From JBFMHD01 sp040752395 [NCBI: Candidatus Hydrogenedentota bacterium] (GTDB taxonomy: Bacteria; JBFMHD01): a DNA stretch of 15,601 nt. The position numbers and the translations under genes were made by a program. Shown here one piece after another: positions 3,801 through 13,893 of the stretch. The notes beneath the pieces were generated by a model. The model had not been told where the DNA came from, did no database searches, and saw only the letters and a program-made list of their open reading frames with translations. Positions within the stretch are counted from its first letter, which is position 1; each line of letters begins with the position of its first letter. Location: assembly GCA_040752395.1 (NCBI GenBank), contig JBFMHD010000052.1, forward strand, positions 1 through 15,601, written 5' to 3'.

Positions 3801-3959
3801 CAGGGAAATGATATAAAGGTTTACAGAACCGACAAAGTTGGTAGTGTACTGATAATCTCAGATGGTGAAAAGATATTAGAACCATTAACTTTTAAAGGCA
3901 GGCTGGAGGAAGAGCCAGAAAAAGAAGGTATCACTCTCGAAACACTACCAGAATTTTAG
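894..3959 (+). CDS. comEC: ComEC/Rec2-type DNA uptake channel with degenerate metallo-beta-lactamase domain
   Basis: Inner-membrane protein expected to carry single-stranded DNA into the cytoplasm during natural transformation. At 1021 residues it is longer than most ComEC proteins (about 750-850). N-terminal helices cover about 5-80, followed by an OB-like DUF4131 region (about 95-235) ending in YTLDLREYFEKQNIF. The competence domain (about 265-610) has multiple helices and the signatures GTSHVLAVSGLHV (311-323), TGARPSSIRATIM (359-371) and FEPAFSLSFMAV (410-421). The C-terminal beta-lactamase-like domain begins at NFLDVGYGSAMHI (667-679), but its metal ligands are replaced: the HxHxDH position reads SINDED (729-734), DGG is NGG (690-692), and the HHGS position reads SHGS (920-923). 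The start is TTG at 894 because GAGGT lies 8 bases upstream; ATG at 915 is the alternative. The stop overlaps the next start by one base. The family call is secure; nuclease activity is doubtful. Confidence 0.93.
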   Translation: MRYFNIIMCFCYSFVVGVAASIIVQPSETLYQYFYIISIIAGCTGLALFVITDIFEIFRLHQAIIFIVAGLSGISLGMGRFVHNKIIPPFVNDPDYPNHIVHFVDEDRNALTIVVGRIAMAPEMRFMKYGDKVDILFKPEVVIPEPGDNKEYLVGEGYIQVSVSANVGEIYPEIASSQAYGYRVQFEGALLRFEPTTVPYTLDLREYFEKQNIFAKMNFYRLKTGEEIKILKDPKTGLPHKGNFVFEWSMIIKDKILKVIKQTTPYPYSAFLAGVTLGLRRGLEQAYNIFEKEKKYKTKFDLITEEFRWSGTSHVLAVSGLHVTIITVMLYGLFAVFRVPKKISSPLIIFSLIIFTIITGARPSSIRATIMNSLVVVSEAYLGIGLKTSLLFGIGIACFSELIFNPKLIFEPAFSLSFMAVLSLALITGPADRFLKRKTGKRTLGGIIGFYTGMILGSFLPGPSTMIFIFIGIIAGIYFGQNIIKLIPRWLMQFIASQFAIQFGMMLPLSAYYFNHLPVAGPIANIVAIPLIGIIVQLGMIAGIIGTVIPSIGIYIALMLNATNYLCMWVFMAVTHLSTITMPYPYMKTFTPKLVAFYYSFLGVLLIIDKVYPDLEVWYYKKLAQATKYLKQRIYATAITGFIILFVIPAIIWREPYQKYDGNLQVNFLDVGYGSAMHIKTPQGKNFLVNGGRFGKYDRDGGFDLADFKIVPYFYKQRIGILDGVFITSINDEDISGLISVVDYMIVDKIYSFFDSSEINIYKKWDELSREIFEKIGDSYLAENCDKFYIRNKAIYYRDIIEKANTPFFPFEWFDHLAVSTIRFIKELFKKENKRPDFLAIKKIGTIIYEEEFNGKKLRIYTLNPDWENPSSNASDMSIVLKIEYGRTGIILLNALKKSGDSKILRFRNNLKADVMQVPSHGSKDACSDALIRAISPEIAILEFGYPRHLYKRLRTEAIDDADYTTLKLQGNDIKVYRTDKVGSVLIISDGEKILEPLTFKGRLEEEPEKEGITLETLPEF

Positions 3960-4915
3960 TGGAAAATAGTAGTGAGGGTCACAAAACCAGTAGCATATAT
4001 TCTATGTTTAATTTTAAGTTCAGCGTCTTTCAGAAACTTATTATTTTATTATCAGCTATCCTGATCACTGTGGGTGGCTTAGTTTTAATTAAACCTGATA
4101 CCAAAGAACAAAGCTATGATGATACTACTCTAAATTTAAAACCATTATCCAATCTCGAATTAGCCTCACCACTCAAAATTGTAACTGAAGATGAACAGAT
4201 AAAACTGCAGGAAGAGGTAAAGATTAACATTAACACAGCCACAGTAGATGAACTCACAACTGTTCCTGGCATCGGCGAGGCAACAGCCAGAGCCATTGTA
4301 GAATATAGAGAGAAAAATAGAAAAGAAGATGAACCTGTATTTTATAAGCTATCTGATTTAGAGAAAGTCCCTCGTATGGGTGAGAAAAAAATTGAGAAAC
4401 TTTCACAATACCTTACTGTCGGCTGGGGTGTTATGCAGCTTGAAAAAGAAAAATCCATTAATATTGAAGAAAAAGAAGACAAAATTAATATTAATACTGC
4501 TGATGTTATTAAACTGCAGGATTTACCCGGTATAGGACCAAAGACAGCAGAGAATATTATTAAGTATAGAGAGACAAAACAATTTGAAAAAATAGAAGAT
4601 ATTATGAATGTTCCGCGCATCGGACCAACACGGTTTGAGAAAATAAAAGATAAAATAACAGTTGGTGAAGAGATGGAAAAATTGTTGAAAAAGAAAAGCT
4701 TGACTAAACCTAAAAAAGTAGAAAAAATTAATCTTAATAAAGCTACAATGGAAGAACTTATAACTTTACCAGGGATCGGTGAACAGACAGCAAAAAATAT
4801 TATAGAGTACAGAACAGAACTTAAAAAATTTAGATCACTTGAGGATTTGCTTGAGATACCTGGCTTTGGCGAAAAAAAACTTGAAAAAATTAGACCATAC
4901 GTAGAGGTTAAATAA
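3959..4915 (+). CDS. membrane-anchored ComEA-like protein with three helix-hairpin-helix modules
   Basis: This 318-residue protein has a cytoplasmic N-terminus, one predicted membrane helix (about 27-44) and an acidic/polar linker. Three ComEA-type modules follow at about 88-154, 175-236 and 257-318. Each opens with a motif such as KININTATVDELTTVPGIG (88-106) and carries a second hairpin such as VPRMGEKKIEKL. These modules bind the DNA backbone without sequence preference. In Gram-positive competence systems ComEA is the double-stranded DNA receptor that feeds ComEC, and it normally carries one such module, so three is unusual. The GTG start overlaps the comEC stop (TAGTG), which points to translational coupling and a shared role. 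It is named by domain only, because repeat number and order differ from classical ComEA. Confidence 0.85.
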   Translation: MENSSEGHKTSSIYSMFNFKFSVFQKLIILLSAILITVGGLVLIKPDTKEQSYDDTTLNLKPLSNLELASPLKIVTEDEQIKLQEEVKININTATVDELTTVPGIGEATARAIVEYREKNRKEDEPVFYKLSDLEKVPRMGEKKIEKLSQYLTVGWGVMQLEKEKSINIEEKEDKININTADVIKLQDLPGIGPKTAENIIKYRETKQFEKIEDIMNVPRIGPTRFEKIKDKITVGEEMEKLLKKKSLTKPKKVEKINLNKATMEELITLPGIGEQTAKNIIEYRTELKKFRSLEDLLEIPGFGEKKLEKIRPYVEVK

Positions 4916-4931
4916 GGTTGTAATATGCTAA

Positions 4932-5087
4932 AAACATTTTTGGCAGTGGTTAAAAATAAAAAAATTGAACTTTTGTTATCCTTTCTCAGACCTATCTGGT
5001 TCAAAGGTTAGACCTGCGATTATCGTTAATTCTGAACACGTATTCGAAAAGCTTAGAGAATTCCTTGCAAAAATGGCTGGGACTTAA
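4932..5087 (+). pseudogene. remnant of a MazF/PemK-family toxin gene
   Basis: This frame is open from 4932 to the TAA at 5085-5087 but has no usable ATG. It reads YPFSDLSGSKVRPAIIVNSE from 4977, which matches the N-terminal hallmark of MazF/PemK-like ribonuclease toxins (FPFTDLSGSKxRPALVxS). The rest of the toxin is missing; the reading continues as HVFEKLREFLAKMAGT and stops. The neighbouring frame from ATG 4925 encodes only 28 residues. I read this as a decayed toxin gene left between the two HhH genes. The family call rests on a stretch of about 18 residues. Confidence 0.5.
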
Positions 5088-5119
5088 AGATTAATCAATT
5101 TTTTATAGGAGATTTTTTT

Positions 5120-6028
5120 ATGAGAAAGCTTATTATTCTATTGATGGTTCTTGGGCTCGTATTTTATGCAGGATGTGGAAAAAAGAAGGAAGCTGAAGAA
5201 AGTAAAACTATGGAACTTGAACAGGAAGAAGTACCAGAGATTGAAGAAGGTGAAGAAGAAATAACTGAAATTACAAAAGAAGATATTGAAAAAGATGTAT
5301 CTGAAGAAGATGCGAAGATAAATGTAAACGAGGCTGATTTAGATGAACTTTTATCAGTAAAAGGATTAGGTCCCACTAAAGCTGAAAAAATTATTCAATA
5401 TAGAGAAGAACACGGACCTTTTAAATCCCTCGATGAACTAACTAAAGTTCCAGGTATCGGTGAGAAAACAGTAGAAAAATTAAGAGAGTATCTTACAGTA
5501 GGTAAAGTAGAAAAAGAGGAAGAATCAGAGGAAAGTAAAACTGAAGATGAGTCAACAGATGAAGAAGGAAAGATAAACATTAATACAGCCTCGTTAGAAG
5601 AACTTGATAATCTGCCGAAAATAGGACCCACTATCGCTCAAAGAATAATTGACTATCGTGAAGAACACGGCGGATTTAAAAGTATTGAAGAATTAAACGA
5701 AGTTAAAGGCATAGGCGATAAAATGTTCAAAAATTTAAAAGACCTGGTTACTGTTGGGAAAGAAGCTAAAAAAGAGGTAGACGAAGAGAAACCAGTAAAA
5801 AAGACTGAAAAAAAGACTACTACAACAAAAAAGACAGGACCAGCAGGCAAGGTTAATATAAATAAAGCATCGAAATCCGAACTTATGACAATTAAAGGCA
5901 TAGGTGAGACTACTGCTGAGAGAATCATTGAGGGAAGACCATATAAAACTATTGATGACCTGAAGAAAGTTAAAGGCATAGGTGAAAAAAAGTTTGAAGC
6001 ACTAAAACCTTTTGTCACAGTAGAATAA
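5120..6028 (+). CDS. probable lipoprotein with three ComEA-type helix-hairpin-helix modules
   Basis: This 302-residue exported protein starts with a short basic n-region and a hydrophobic core ending FYAGC. Cys19 is a likely lipidation site, although Tyr at -3 is atypical for a lipobox. A strongly acidic, glutamate-rich linker (about 24-65) follows. Three ComEA-like modules lie at about 66-127, 151-212 and 244-302, each with NxNxAxxxEL and a GIG or GLG hairpin pair. The linkers between them are acidic first and then Lys/Thr-rich (222-239). It presumably binds DNA outside the inner membrane as a second receptor beside the ComEC-linked anchored protein. AGGAG lies 8 bases before the ATG. It is separated from the first HhH gene by 204 bases holding a toxin remnant, so the two may be an old duplication interrupted by an insertion. 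A structural role unrelated to competence cannot be excluded. Confidence 0.82.
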   Translation: MRKLIILLMVLGLVFYAGCGKKKEAEESKTMELEQEEVPEIEEGEEEITEITKEDIEKDVSEEDAKINVNEADLDELLSVKGLGPTKAEKIIQYREEHGPFKSLDELTKVPGIGEKTVEKLREYLTVGKVEKEEESEESKTEDESTDEEGKININTASLEELDNLPKIGPTIAQRIIDYREEHGGFKSIEELNEVKGIGDKMFKNLKDLVTVGKEAKKEVDEEKPVKKTEKKTTTTKKTGPAGKVNINKASKSELMTIKGIGETTAERIIEGRPYKTIDDLKKVKGIGEKKFEALKPFVTVE

Positions 6029-10475: not shown

Positions 10476-11849
10476 ATGGTAAATGAGGATATTATTAAAC
10501 AGATAGTCGAAGAAGTATTAAAAAAGCAGAAAGAGAGTATCTCAAACAAAGAGACCGAGCTAAAAAAAAGCACAGAGATTCAAGCACCAGAAGGGGCAAA
10601 AAATATACTTGGGTTAATTACCGGTGCACCTGCTTTTGAGGATGAGGCTATCGTTCAATTAAGAAAACTCACTGAAAATGGACTCGATATTACACTCATA
10701 TTTACACGTGGAGCTAAAAGAGTACTTAACCTTGATAGATTCAGACTCGGGATAAGCGGTGTTAAGATTTTACTCGTTGATGAAGTCACTGACCCTGAAC
10801 GGTTCGCTGAAACTTTTGATGTCGTAATCGTCCCGCTTTTAAGTATGAACTCTGCTGCAAAATTAAGTCTGATGATAAGCGATAACGTTATTACAATAAT
10901 AGCGCTCTGGGCTCTTGGTAAAGGTAAACGTGTGATCGCTTCGTATAGTTCTATGATATTTAATGAGAACCCACCTGAAGGCGTTATTAAAAAAAGAGAT
11001 GAATATATAAAACTATTAAGAGACATAGGAATCGAGGTGGTAGAAGTGGCTCATTTAGCTGAAGCTGTATTAAAAGAGGGCACGCTGACTACAAAAGATA
11101 CAACCGATCAAACAAAAGAGTTAAAGCCACTTTTCGAGGCTGGTGCTGATAGAATCTCTTCTCGTGGCTCTATGCTAAATGTTGGTAGTGAAGTGGCATC
11201 AATCATAGACCACACATTATTGAAACCCAATGCTACAACATCCCAGATAGCTAAACTATGCGAAGAAGCTAAACAATACGGGTTTGCGTCGGTCTGTGTT
11301 AATCCCGCATACGTTGCGCTTGCTAAACAATTATTAAAAGACTCAAGACCTAAGGTCTGCACAGTTGTGGGTTTCCCGCTTGGCGCAACTACACCTTATG
11401 CTAAAGCACAGGAAACCATTGACGCAATAAAAAATGGCGCTGATGAGATAGATATGGTAATAAACGTGGGCGCTTTGAAAAGCGGTGATTATGAGACTAT
11501 TAAAAAAGAGATAAGAGCAGTTGTTGATGCAGCAGAAGGTAGAATTGTGAAAGTCATACTTGAAACAGCGCTTCTTACTGATGAAGAAAAAGTCAAAGCC
11601 TGCCAGATTGCAAAAGAAGCAGGTGCTGATTTTGTAAAAACATCAACCGGGTTTGGACCCGGCGGTGCTACTGTTGAGGATATAGCGTTGATGCGAAAAA
11701 CAGTAGGACTTGGAATGGGTGTAAAGGCATCTGGTGGCGTTCGTGATCTTGAAACAGCTATAAAGATGATCCGCGCAGGCGCCTCGCGTATCGGCGCATC
11801 CGCAAGCATCGCTATCGCAAAAGGCGAAACCACTAAGACTGATTATTAA
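10476..11849 (+). CDS. deoC: encapsulation-peptide/flavoprotein/deoxyribose-phosphate aldolase fusion
   Basis: Three parts are visible in 457 residues. Residues 1-18 form an amphipathic helix ([16 protein letters not shown]) of the type that directs enzymes into bacterial microcompartments. A charged linker follows. Residues 42-200 resemble the flavoprotein fold (Pfam Flavoprotein-like) found in microcompartment loci, with [38 protein letters not shown] and [13 protein letters not shown]. Residues 235-457 are DeoC, which cleaves 2-deoxyribose-5-phosphate to acetaldehyde and glyceraldehyde-3-phosphate. Lys388 in KTSTGFG is the Schiff-base lysine, and Asp326 and Lys417 match the catalytic Asp102 and Lys201 of E. 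coli. A normal DeoC has about 215-260 residues. AGGGGG lies 5 bases before the ATG. The stop abuts deoB, the preceding step of the pathway. The aldolase call is firm; compartment targeting is inferred from the helix and middle domain. Confidence 0.93.
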
Positions 11850-13037
11850 ATGGATATGATATTCCACAGAATTTTTTTGGTAGTTATTGATGGGCTCGGT
11901 GTAGGAGAACTCCCTGACTCTGAAAAATATGGCGATAAAGGATCAAATACTCTTGTACATATCCTTGAGAATGTTAAAAAAATAAAATTACCAAATATGA
12001 CCAGCCTCGGGCTCGGCAATATACTAAATAAAGATGACATCCTGCCGGTATTAAAAGAAACAAAAGGGTTCTATGGAAAATCTGATGAATTAAATGAAGG
12101 TAAAGATACTGTAACCGGCCACTGGGAGATGGCTGGTATAAAACTGCAAACACCATTTCGCACTTACCCAAACGGCTTCCCTGAAGAATTACTTGACGAA
12201 TTTTCAAAAAGAGTTGGCAGAGCCGTTATCGGCAATAAAGCTATATCCGGAACAATAATACTTGATGAATTAGGTGAAGAACACATTAAAACCGGGGCTT
12301 TAATAGTTTATACCTCTGCTGATAGTGTATTTCAAATAGCTGCAAATGAAGATATCATCCCGATAGACGAACAGTATAAGATATGCAAGATCGCACGTGA
12401 ATTATTAGTTGACGAATATTTTGTAGGAAGGGTTATAGCTCGACCATTTGTTGGAAATAAAAAAGGAGAATTTAAACGAACACCTAATCGTAAAGATTTC
12501 GGCGTGCCACTACCAAAACCAAACCTTTTAAATAATATGCTTGAAAAAGGGTATGATGTTATAGGGGTCGGTAAAATTTATGATATATTTTCTGGTGAAG
12601 GGCTCAGTGAATATGTTAAACAAAAAGATAACAAAGAGGGATTAGAGCACGTAAATAATTATATCGATAAAGATTTCACCGGTTTATGTTTTATTAATTT
12701 AGTTGATACAGATATGAAGTATGGTCACAGACTGGACATCCAGGGTTTTTATAATGCGCTCGAAGAAATTGATGATTATGTTGGTAATTATATGAAAAAG
12801 TTAAGAACCACAGATTTATTTATTATAACAGGCGACCATGGTTGTGACCCAACAAATCACACAGACCATAACAGAGAATATATACCTATTTTATGTTATT
12901 CTTCTTTATTTAAAAGAGGCAAAAGTTTAGGAACCCGTAAGACCTTTGCAGACATAGGTCAGACGATAGCAGAAAATTATGATGTCGATAGACTCGCTAT
13001 CGGCAAAAGTTTTTTACCGATATTGACCCAAATCTAA
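11850..13037 (+). CDS. deoB: phosphopentomutase
   Basis: Cytosolic metal-dependent mutase that interconverts (deoxy)ribose-1-phosphate and (deoxy)ribose-5-phosphate, linking nucleoside phosphorolysis to DeoC. The 395-residue length is standard. Alkaline phosphatase superfamily ligands are in place: Asp14 (VVIDGLG), the phosphorylated threonine in DTVTGHWE (86-93, probably Thr87), Asp286 and His293 in VDTDMKYGH, and Asp329, His330 and His340 in GDHGCDPTNHTDH. The cap-domain segment FQIAANEDIIP and the loop VGKIYDIFSGEG are also typical. It starts immediately after the deoC stop with no separate ribosome binding site, so translation is coupled. ATG at 11856 is an equally possible start. No purine or pyrimidine phosphorylase lies within the window. 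Confidence 0.96.
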   Translation: MDMIFHRIFLVVIDGLGVGELPDSEKYGDKGSNTLVHILENVKKIKLPNMTSLGLGNILNKDDILPVLKETKGFYGKSDELNEGKDTVTGHWEMAGIKLQTPFRTYPNGFPEELLDEFSKRVGRAVIGNKAISGTIILDELGEEHIKTGALIVYTSADSVFQIAANEDIIPIDEQYKICKIARELLVDEYFVGRVIARPFVGNKKGEFKRTPNRKDFGVPLPKPNLLNNMLEKGYDVIGVGKIYDIFSGEGLSEYVKQKDNKEGLEHVNNYIDKDFTGLCFINLVDTDMKYGHRLDIQGFYNALEEIDDYVGNYMKKLRTTDLFIITGDHGCDPTNHTDHNREYIPILCYSSLFKRGKSLGTRKTFADIGQTIAENYDVDRLAIGKSFLPILTQI

Positions 13038-13090: not shown

Positions 13091-13504
13091 TCATAATACT
13101 GAACTGCCTTCCTGGGTTGTTATTTTATGATATCCAAATTCAGTCCTTTGAAGATTATTTTGTAAAAGATATTGTTTGATCTGATTTTTTATATTATAGA
13201 ATTCTTTATCTCCGATAATGGGGACCCCATCTAAAAAAATATCCATAATAAATCCGCTTGTCAATCTATCTTGCAATTCTTCAGGCCGCCAGGGTATAAT
13301 ATCTATTCTCCCTGGTTTTTCAGGCCAGAGTAGATCAAGACGCATAAAATAATCTTTTGGTAAGCTATTTGAAATAATGAATATGTCGATATCGGTATAT
13401 CCTATCGCATCATTCCTCGCACAAGAACCAAATAATACCGCAACCTCAATATCTATTTTACTATTAATTAAGTTCAGGTAATTTGTAATAATTTCTTTAC
13501 ACAT
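13091..13504 (-). CDS. MNT-type nucleotidyltransferase, antitoxin of a HEPN/MNT pair
   Basis: A 137-residue minimal nucleotidyltransferase of the DNA polymerase beta fold. VAVLFGSCARNDAIGYTDID (21-40) contains the GS of the active-site loop (26-27) and the metal-binding Asp38 and Asp40. The third acidic residue is Asp68 in GRIDIIPW. All catalytic residues are thus kept. In characterised pairs MntA-type proteins neutralise the HEPN toxin by adding AMP to it. The start overlaps the end of the HEPN gene by 31 bases, so the two are translated together, HEPN first. The 53-base gap to the convergent deoB shows no clear terminator. Confidence 0.88.
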   Translation of the reverse strand: MCKEIITNYLNLINSKIDIEVAVLFGSCARNDAIGYTDIDIFIISNSLPKDYFMRLDLLWPEKPGRIDIIPWRPEELQDRLTSGFIMDIFLDGVPIIGDKEFYNIKNQIKQYLLQNNLQRTEFGYHKITTQEGSSVL

Positions 13505-13893
13505 AGGATTATGGTTTCACAATCATCCATACAATTCTTTGCATCCTTTAATCCAAAGTATCGATACGCTACCCCGTAAGGGACCCCATTGGGATACCTT
13601 GTCGGGATATAATATCTATCAAGTCTTCTAGCTTGTTCACTGCAATTCTTTAATTCTTCAATCCCATTTATCCTGTATGTTTTATCTCCTTCTATAAGGA
13701 CAAAAATACTATGAACTTTTTCAACATATTCTCCCCTGTTTATATACACGGCTTTAACTGCTTTTTCACTGGCTTGCTGACACAAATAACAACACCAATT
13801 ATATCGTTGTTTTTCATAAAGATCCCTTGCTGTATCAAAATCATATTTTGCTTGTTCTATCCATCGCATTTGTTCAACAATTCTATTGTTCAT
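13474..13893 (-). CDS. HEPN domain protein, toxin-side partner of the MNT gene
   Basis: This 139-residue all-helical HEPN protein begins with QMRWIEQAKYDFDTARDLYE (8-27) and YNWCCYLCQQASEKAVKAVY (31-50), both typical of the family. KVHSI (59-63) and LDRYYIPTRYPNG (91-103) are also family-typical. HEPN toxins are usually RNases using an RxxxxH pair. The visible R/Y-rich loop has no histidine at that spacing, so it belongs to the IPTRYP subgroup, whose activity is not established as far as I know. GGAG lies about 9 bases before the ATG. A possible promoter lies at 13932-13960. Confidence 0.88.
   Translation of the reverse strand: MNNRIVEQMRWIEQAKYDFDTARDLYEKQRYNWCCYLCQQASEKAVKAVYINRGEYVEKVHSIFVLIEGDKTYRINGIEELKNCSEQARRLDRYYIPTRYPNGVPYGVAYRYFGLKDAKNCMDDCETIILCVKKLLQIT

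What the first reader, a model, noticed from the sequence alone, without database searches (positions are those of the whole stretch)
10476..13037. Tripartite DeoC: microcompartment-type targeting helix, flavoprotein domain and aldolase in one chain, coupled to DeoB
Seen: DeoC with all catalytic residues (Asp326, Lys388, Lys417) carries about 235 extra N-terminal residues. These are an amphipathic [16 protein letters not shown] helix, a linker, and a flavoprotein-like domain. DeoB follows with no gap. Known: short amphipathic helices of this type target cargo into bacterial microcompartments. The sugar-phosphate-utilising (SPU) type of microcompartment uses DeoC-like aldolases, and flavoprotein-family genes occur in microcompartment loci. 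Inferred: this is an aldolase packaged to contain acetaldehyde, with a flavin or NADH partner built in. The shell must be encoded elsewhere, or the enzyme persists without one.
Basis: partly seen in the sequence, partly recalled or inferred. Interest (0 to 1): 0.75.

Follow-up and report, generated by a model that had tools for sequence, protein, structure and literature searches.

The report
Microcompartment-tagged flavoprotein–aldolase fusion enzyme
This gene joins a shell-targeting tag, a flavin-type domain and a sugar-phosphate-splitting enzyme in one protein; related fused proteins sit in the gene clusters of bacterial protein organelles thought to digest DNA sugars, so it is probably cargo of such an organelle, although no shell gene is visible in this stretch of DNA.

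Summary
ORF 10476-11849 (457 aa) is an amphipathic N-terminal helix, a linker, a PF02441 domain and a DeoC with its catalytic residues; deoB follows with no gap. I found 15 more proteins with both domains in one frame, in three phylum-level groups. All 15 genomes carry BMC-H genes, and 14 of the 15 genes have a shell gene nearby. In Elusimicrobiota the fusion is the aldolase of full sugar-phosphate-utilising (SPU) loci. The helix matches encapsulation peptides (EPs) of other SPU aldolases: of 1,414 ORF N-termini, the 11 that score as high are 10 training EPs and one BMC dehydrogenase. The middle domain folds like FMN-binding DmrB/HFCD proteins (Z up to 19.6) and groups with stand-alone BMC flavoproteins (100/100). 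Against: 4 of the 15 relatives lack the helix, and the window lacks a linker Cys motif seen in many. Not shown: a shell in the window's own genome (none is held), and flavin binding or any redox role. EP-tagged aldolases and BMC flavoproteins are each known; I found no report of the fusion in the papers searched. Verdict: a real, recurrent new architecture of a known kind of BMC enzyme.

The parts
10476..11849 (+). Fused EP-flavoprotein-DeoC gene, 457 aa
10482..10535 (+). Encapsulation-peptide-like amphipathic helix, residues 3-20
   Evidence: EP matrix score 15.2 bits; predicted helix 3-28, pLDDT about 66-69
10536..10595 (+). Linker, residues 21-40
   Evidence: pLDDT under 50 at 21-40
10596..11084 (+). 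Flavoprotein-fold (PF02441/HFCD/DmrB-like) domain, residues 41-203
   Evidence: Pfam PF02441 E 1.2e-8; model pLDDT 88.9; Z 19.6 to DmrB
11085..11192 (+). Second linker, residues 204-239; the Cys motif found here in many relatives is absent
   Evidence: pLDDT under 50 at 202-239; alignment
11193..11846 (+). Class I deoxyribose-phosphate aldolase domain, residues 240-457, catalytic Asp326, Lys388, Lys417
   Evidence: TIGR00126 E 1.9e-87; 16 of 16 conserved; Foldseek to DERA structures, E 3e-28
11850..13037 (+). deoB, phosphopentomutase, no gap after the fusion gene, no EP-like start
   Evidence: TIGR01696 E 2e-145; EP score -4.5 bits
10151..10474 (+). DUF1820 gene ending one base before the fusion's start codon; probably co-transcribed (inferred from spacing)
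   Evidence: PF08850 E 7.7e-22

Best explanation
It is the signature aldolase of a sugar-phosphate-utilising (SPU-type) bacterial microcompartment, in a fused form. The N-terminal helix carries the enzyme into the shell lumen (inferred from homologous EPs). DeoB, in the cytosol, turns deoxyribose-1-phosphate into deoxyribose-5-phosphate. [quoted passage not shown] not shown for this organism). The middle domain is a BMC-specific member of the FMN-binding HFCD fold; it probably binds a flavin and no longer acts as a cysteine decarboxylase, and the fusion keeps it at fixed stoichiometry with the aldolase. The shell is encoded elsewhere in the genome, as for several relatives (inferred).
For: Fifteen fused relatives. 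BMC-H in all 15 of their genomes (16 of 16 with G215, which has only a stand-alone flavoprotein). A shell gene on the same fetched stretch as the fusion in 14 of 15; the exception is L146, a 6.5-kb contig. Full SPU loci around the fusion in L138, L139, L140, L141 and L143. Window EP score matched only by BMC proteins among 1,414 ORFs. The only plasmid-collection hit to the N-terminal module is a PDU-locus flavoprotein of Ilyobacter polytropus, aligned from residue 6. Flavoprotein fold; 16 fused plus 9 stand-alone BMC domains against 7 CoaBC/Dfp domains 100/100. In the Elusimicrobiota-phylum set extended DeoCs go with shell genes: 38 of 40 long-frame against 3 of 86 short-frame genomes. Precedent for the layout: EP-DeoC followed directly by DeoB in L047, with the strong shell matches of that genome on another contig.
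Against: No shell or other BMC gene in the 15.6-kb window and no genome to search. Four of 15 relatives (L138, L140, L141, L143) start at the flavoprotein domain, and by eye no EP is readable in the 210 bases upstream; two others (L142, L146) have EP-like starts that score only 9.0 and 7.3 bits, below the best non-BMC background of 11.4. The window, L009 and L148 lack the linker Cys motif. Flavin binding is not shown: PF02441 itself reaches E 0.01 in only 10 of 16, and the flavoprotein part of G208 and G211 is very diverged.
Confidence: 0.78

Rival explanations
1. Relic: the lineage has lost its shell and the tagged aldolase now works free in the cytosol as an ordinary deo-operon enzyme with DeoB.
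For: No shell gene in the window; deoB adjacent, as in ordinary deo operons (recalled); Cys motif absent.
Against: The helix is still close to the EP consensus; no fusion-bearing genome without shell genes was found, 15 of 15 have them; other EP-DeoCs or fusions lie apart from the main shell genes in genomes that have shells.
Confidence: 0.15
2. The middle domain is a scaffold, not a cofactor enzyme: it oligomerises (proteins of this fold form trimers or cages) and clusters several EPs and aldolases for loading.
For: Very fast divergence (branches over 1 change per site) while the fold is kept; its best match DmrB is titled a cubic protein cage; four relatives keep the domain but lack the helix.
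Against: Ser/Thr77, Asn125, Lys129 and Asp136 are kept in 12, 13, 14 and 14 of 16; that such positions touch FMN in the family is recalled, not tested.
Confidence: 0.35
3. Chance or artefact: the helix is any amphipathic start and the fusion is an assembly or annotation accident.
For: About 1% of shuffles of the same residues reach the EP score.
Against: Fifteen fused relatives from other genomes, 11 with a helix at the same place.
Confidence: 0.02

Closest known systems
SPU microcompartment aldolase (pfam01791 DeoC of SPU loci; Axen 2014, Sutter 2021, passages seen)
   Same: DeoC-type aldolase in loci with RpiB, AldDH, PduL and shell genes in relatives
   Different: Carries an extra flavoprotein domain; in the window the gene stands beside deoB, away from any visible shell gene
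EP-like N-terminal extension on pfam01791 aldolases of HO-type genomes (Sutter 2021 passage)
   Same: EP plus DeoC; can be encoded away from the shell locus
   Different: No flavoprotein domain is mentioned in the passages read
Stand-alone PF02441 flavoproteins of BMC loci (Ilyobacter PDU locus; Axen 2014 trend)
   Same: EP-like start and the same domain clade
   Different: Separate protein, not joined to an enzyme
DmrB and HFCD flavoproteins (PPC decarboxylase, EpiD, UbiX)
   Same: Fold; Z 15.3-19.6
   Different: 12-22% identity in those rows; no Cys in residues 1-240

Membership tests
Deoxyribose-phosphate aldolase (DeoC) | Equivalog profile over its cut-off | tested here: met
   TIGR00126 292.1 bits, cut-off 117.3
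Deoxyribose-phosphate aldolase (DeoC) | Catalytic Asp and two Lys (roles recalled) | tested here: met
   Asp326, Lys388, Lys417 in 16 of 16
SPU microcompartment enzyme | Encoded with shell genes and RpiB in the same locus or genome | not testable with these tools
   No genome held; none found in the window; relatives have both in or near the locus in most cases
SPU microcompartment enzyme | EP: terminal amphipathic helix on a disordered linker | tested here: met
   targeting itself not tested
PF02441 flavoprotein / HFCD fold | Profile over cut-off and fold | tested here: met
   35.1 bits, cut-off 22.7; Z up to 19.6
PF02441 flavoprotein / HFCD fold | Bound FMN | not testable with these tools
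   Only motif positions and fold examined
CoaBC / phosphopantothenoylcysteine decarboxylase | Equivalog profile over its cut-off | tested here: not met
   TIGR00521 21.7 bits, cut-off 219.7; outside the Dfp clade

The most novel reading that the evidence does not exclude
The built-in flavoprotein is a lumenal electron carrier: it takes electrons from the NADH made by the aldehyde dehydrogenase and passes them out through PduS and the shell, so that this SPU microcompartment recycles NAD+ without an alcohol dehydrogenase, with the carrier fused to the enzyme that makes the aldehyde. Consistent: none of 34 annotated loci showed a BLASTP hit to the one alcohol dehydrogenase reference used, and many carry PduS. 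Against: PduS does not track the fusion (7 of 8 fused against 22 of 30 non-fused long-frame Elusimicrobiota-phylum genomes, counted by hand).
Probability: 0.2. Interest if true: 0.75.

Novelty: new variant of a known kind. Interest (0 to 1): 0.55.

Why it matters
Flavin-type proteins such as PF02441 recur in BMC loci without a known role (Axen 2014 calls this an intriguing trend; passage read). A natural fusion ties one of them, at fixed ratio, to the aldehyde-producing step, so the question can be tested on a single purified protein. It also suggests that SPU cargo can lie away from shell genes, where surveys limited to shell-gene neighbourhoods would miss it.

Tried and rejected
Scans with the N-terminal module alone found nothing in viral contigs or genome contigs; the whole protein gave only plain DeoCs in viral contigs and the first three fusions in genome contigs. 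A PDB sequence search with the module gave only E 0.35 to EpiD.

Encapsulin cargo was considered because A-domain encapsulin operons can carry DeoC (PMC8346489 passages). The Pfam scans of 13 window proteins list no encapsulin family; not pursued further.

A link between PduS and the fusion was tested and not found. The N-terminal module was sought in the phyla of G006 (82 genomes) and G004 (245 genomes) with no match at E 1e-6; the tool warns that such an empty answer shows nothing without a positive control.

One single fusion event without later loss is not supported by the DeoC tree (4 changes, at least 3 forced); the flavoprotein tree leaves it open (3 changes, 1 forced) and has long branches.

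Taxon of the window: not settled. The six best UvrD matches among 340 genomes of the G009 phylum are 36-38% identical (at most 3 candidates scored per genome), and ComEC precedes uvrD in 4 of 5 such regions fetched. But G354, of another phylum, has a UvrD match of similar total score in two pieces (336.7 and 117.3 bits, the first 49% identical), without a ComEC hit nearby.

Rows left out of the contingency table: 2 fragmentary and 7 distant DeoC hits (G019, G144 and G117 of these have shell genes) and 63 genomes without a DeoC hit (2 with shell genes). Four genomes with weak PF00936 matches (E 2e-5 to 7e-5) were counted as without shell: I counted 46, the tool reports 48 over its cut-off.

Papers: PMC4207490, PMC8217296, PMC12339742 and PMC8346489 were seen as passages; all others only as search listings. 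That the fusion is not in print rests on searches and those passages; supplements were not read.

Full report
What is in the window. ORF 10476-11849 encodes 457 aa: helix (residues 3-18, modelled 3-28), linker, PF02441 domain (42-158 by Pfam, E 1.2e-8, above cut-off), second linker, and DeoC from residue 240 (TIGR00126, E 1.9e-87). DeoB starts at the base after the DeoC stop; a DUF1820 gene ends one base before the fusion's start codon. The other genes scanned are ndk, comEC, two helix-hairpin-helix proteins, uvrD, a D12-class methyltransferase, a nucleotidyltransferase/HEPN pair, a nitroreductase and a short protein without a clear family; none is a shell or BMC core gene.

The fusion is real and recurrent. 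A genome-contig scan with the whole protein (80 best loci kept) returned three relatives of the same architecture: L008 (Bacillota-titled MAG), L009 (Dependentiae-titled) and L010 (Armatimonadetes-titled). With the window that makes 16 aligned fused proteins. A truncated copy may lie at a contig end in G253 (L153). In G208 and G211 the flavoprotein part is very diverged (profile E 2.7e-9 and 1.3e-14), and PF02441 itself reaches E 0.01 in 10 of 16.

The relatives are microcompartment genes. I annotated 34 loci by BLASTP against labelled Ilyobacter and relative proteins. L138 reads BMC-H, BMC-P, AldDH, PduS, BMC-T, RpiB, RpiB, BMC-P, BMC-P, fusion, BMC-H; L139 and L140 are similar; L141 and L143 also show PduL (no PduS in L141's 20 kb; that genome has one on another contig). 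L008, L010, L147, L150 and L151 have RpiB and shell genes upstream; L009 and L148 a BMC-P directly upstream; L142 and L144 a BMC-H directly downstream. L146, on a 6.5-kb contig, shows none. All 15 fusion genomes have PF00936. In the 198 genomes of the G009 phylum, a long DeoC frame goes with shell genes: 38 of 40 against 3 of 86 short frames, Fisher p 3e-26. Read from their own start codons, the two long-frame exceptions are frames of 218 and 254 aa without the long extension; two of the three short-frame positives have 67 residues before the DHT motif without a classical EP. These are counts of genomes, not independent events.

The helix looks like an encapsulation peptide. Non-fused DeoCs from several phyla carry the same kind of helix. 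A matrix from 12 EPs of non-fused proteins gives the window 15.2 bits; among 1,414 six-frame ORFs over 150 aa from other loci, 11 reach this: 10 training EPs and one BMC AldDH. The highest clearly non-BMC ORF has 11.4 bits. About 1% of shuffles of the window's own residues 2-30 reach the score. [quoted passage not shown] Against: L138, L140, L141 and L143 begin at the flavoprotein domain, and L142 and L146 score only 9.0 and 7.3 bits.

The middle domain belongs with BMC flavoproteins. The plasmid collection gave one hit at E 1e-5, the flavoprotein of a PDU locus of Ilyobacter polytropus, aligned from residue 6. Sixteen fused and nine stand-alone domains separate from seven CoaBC/Dfp domains with 100/100 support; the order inside is mostly unresolved. 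The AF2 model of residues 40-203 (7 sequences, pLDDT 88.9, pTM 0.85) matches apo DmrB (Z 19.6, rmsd 2.6 over 158), DmrB with FMN (Z 19.2), PPC decarboxylases, EpiD, UbiX and dipicolinate synthase B; rows 1-37 of the list have Z 15.3 or more and the next is 11.8. Ser/Thr77, Asn125, Lys129 and Asp136 are kept in 12, 13, 14 and 14 of 16, and residues 1-240 of the window hold no Cys. That such positions contact FMN, and that a Cys serves decarboxylation in CoaC-like enzymes, is recalled. I take a flavin site as plausible and cysteine decarboxylation as unlikely.

Where is the shell? The window's genome is not held. Precedents for dispersed genes: L047 has an EP-DeoC followed directly by DeoB, and the strong shell matches of its genome lie on a different contig; in G002, G045 and G354 most PF00936 genes lie on contigs other than the fusion's. 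Kinship is unsettled: the six best UvrD matches in 340 genomes of the G009 phylum (36-38%) all come from genomes with shells, with ComEC before uvrD as in the window in 4 of 5 regions, but G354 of another phylum has a UvrD match of similar total score without ComEC nearby. G354 too has the fusion and shells.

Mechanism. Seen in sequence: intact DeoC, EP-like helix and HFCD-fold domain in one chain. From established knowledge: DeoB supplies deoxyribose-5-phosphate and DeoC yields acetaldehyde; SPU loci are proposed to process products of DNA breakdown (Sutter 2021 passage). Inferred: import into a shell, flavin binding, and a redox or scaffold role of the middle domain. Known before: SPU DeoCs, EP-like extensions on pfam01791 aldolases, and PF02441 among BMC-locus domains. 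A fusion of the two was not found in the searches made. Hence a new variant of a known kind.

Noticed in passing
L008, L010, L138-L151 linkers (alignment A4), and L017, L029, L030, L031: Many SPU-type DeoCs have a Cys cluster (roughly C...EC..CG.C) between the N-terminal part and the aldolase, perhaps a metal or Fe-S site; the window, L009 and L148 lack it.
   Followed up: partly
L011, L016, L018, L020, L138-L144, L161, L162: A short repeated linker motif like [ST]AGKVF recurs in Elusimicrobiota-phylum DeoCs, in some several times per protein; role unknown.
   Followed up: no
L138, L140, L141, L143: Fused proteins inside shell-gene loci that lack the N-terminal helix and start at the flavoprotein domain, so helix-free loading must be possible if they are cargo.
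   Followed up: partly
L138-L141, L143, L145, L156: Two RpiB-like genes in tandem in these SPU loci.
   Followed up: no
L008, L010, L030, L147, L150, L151: recO follows the fused or EP-tagged deoC directly in several genomes.
   Followed up: no
window 13091-13893 (-): Overlapping nucleotidyltransferase (PF18765) and HEPN (PF05168) genes, an MNT/HEPN toxin-antitoxin-like pair.
   Followed up: no
window 3959-6028 (+): Two consecutive proteins with three HHH_3 repeats each, directly after comEC; the second has a lipoprotein-like start.
   Followed up: partly
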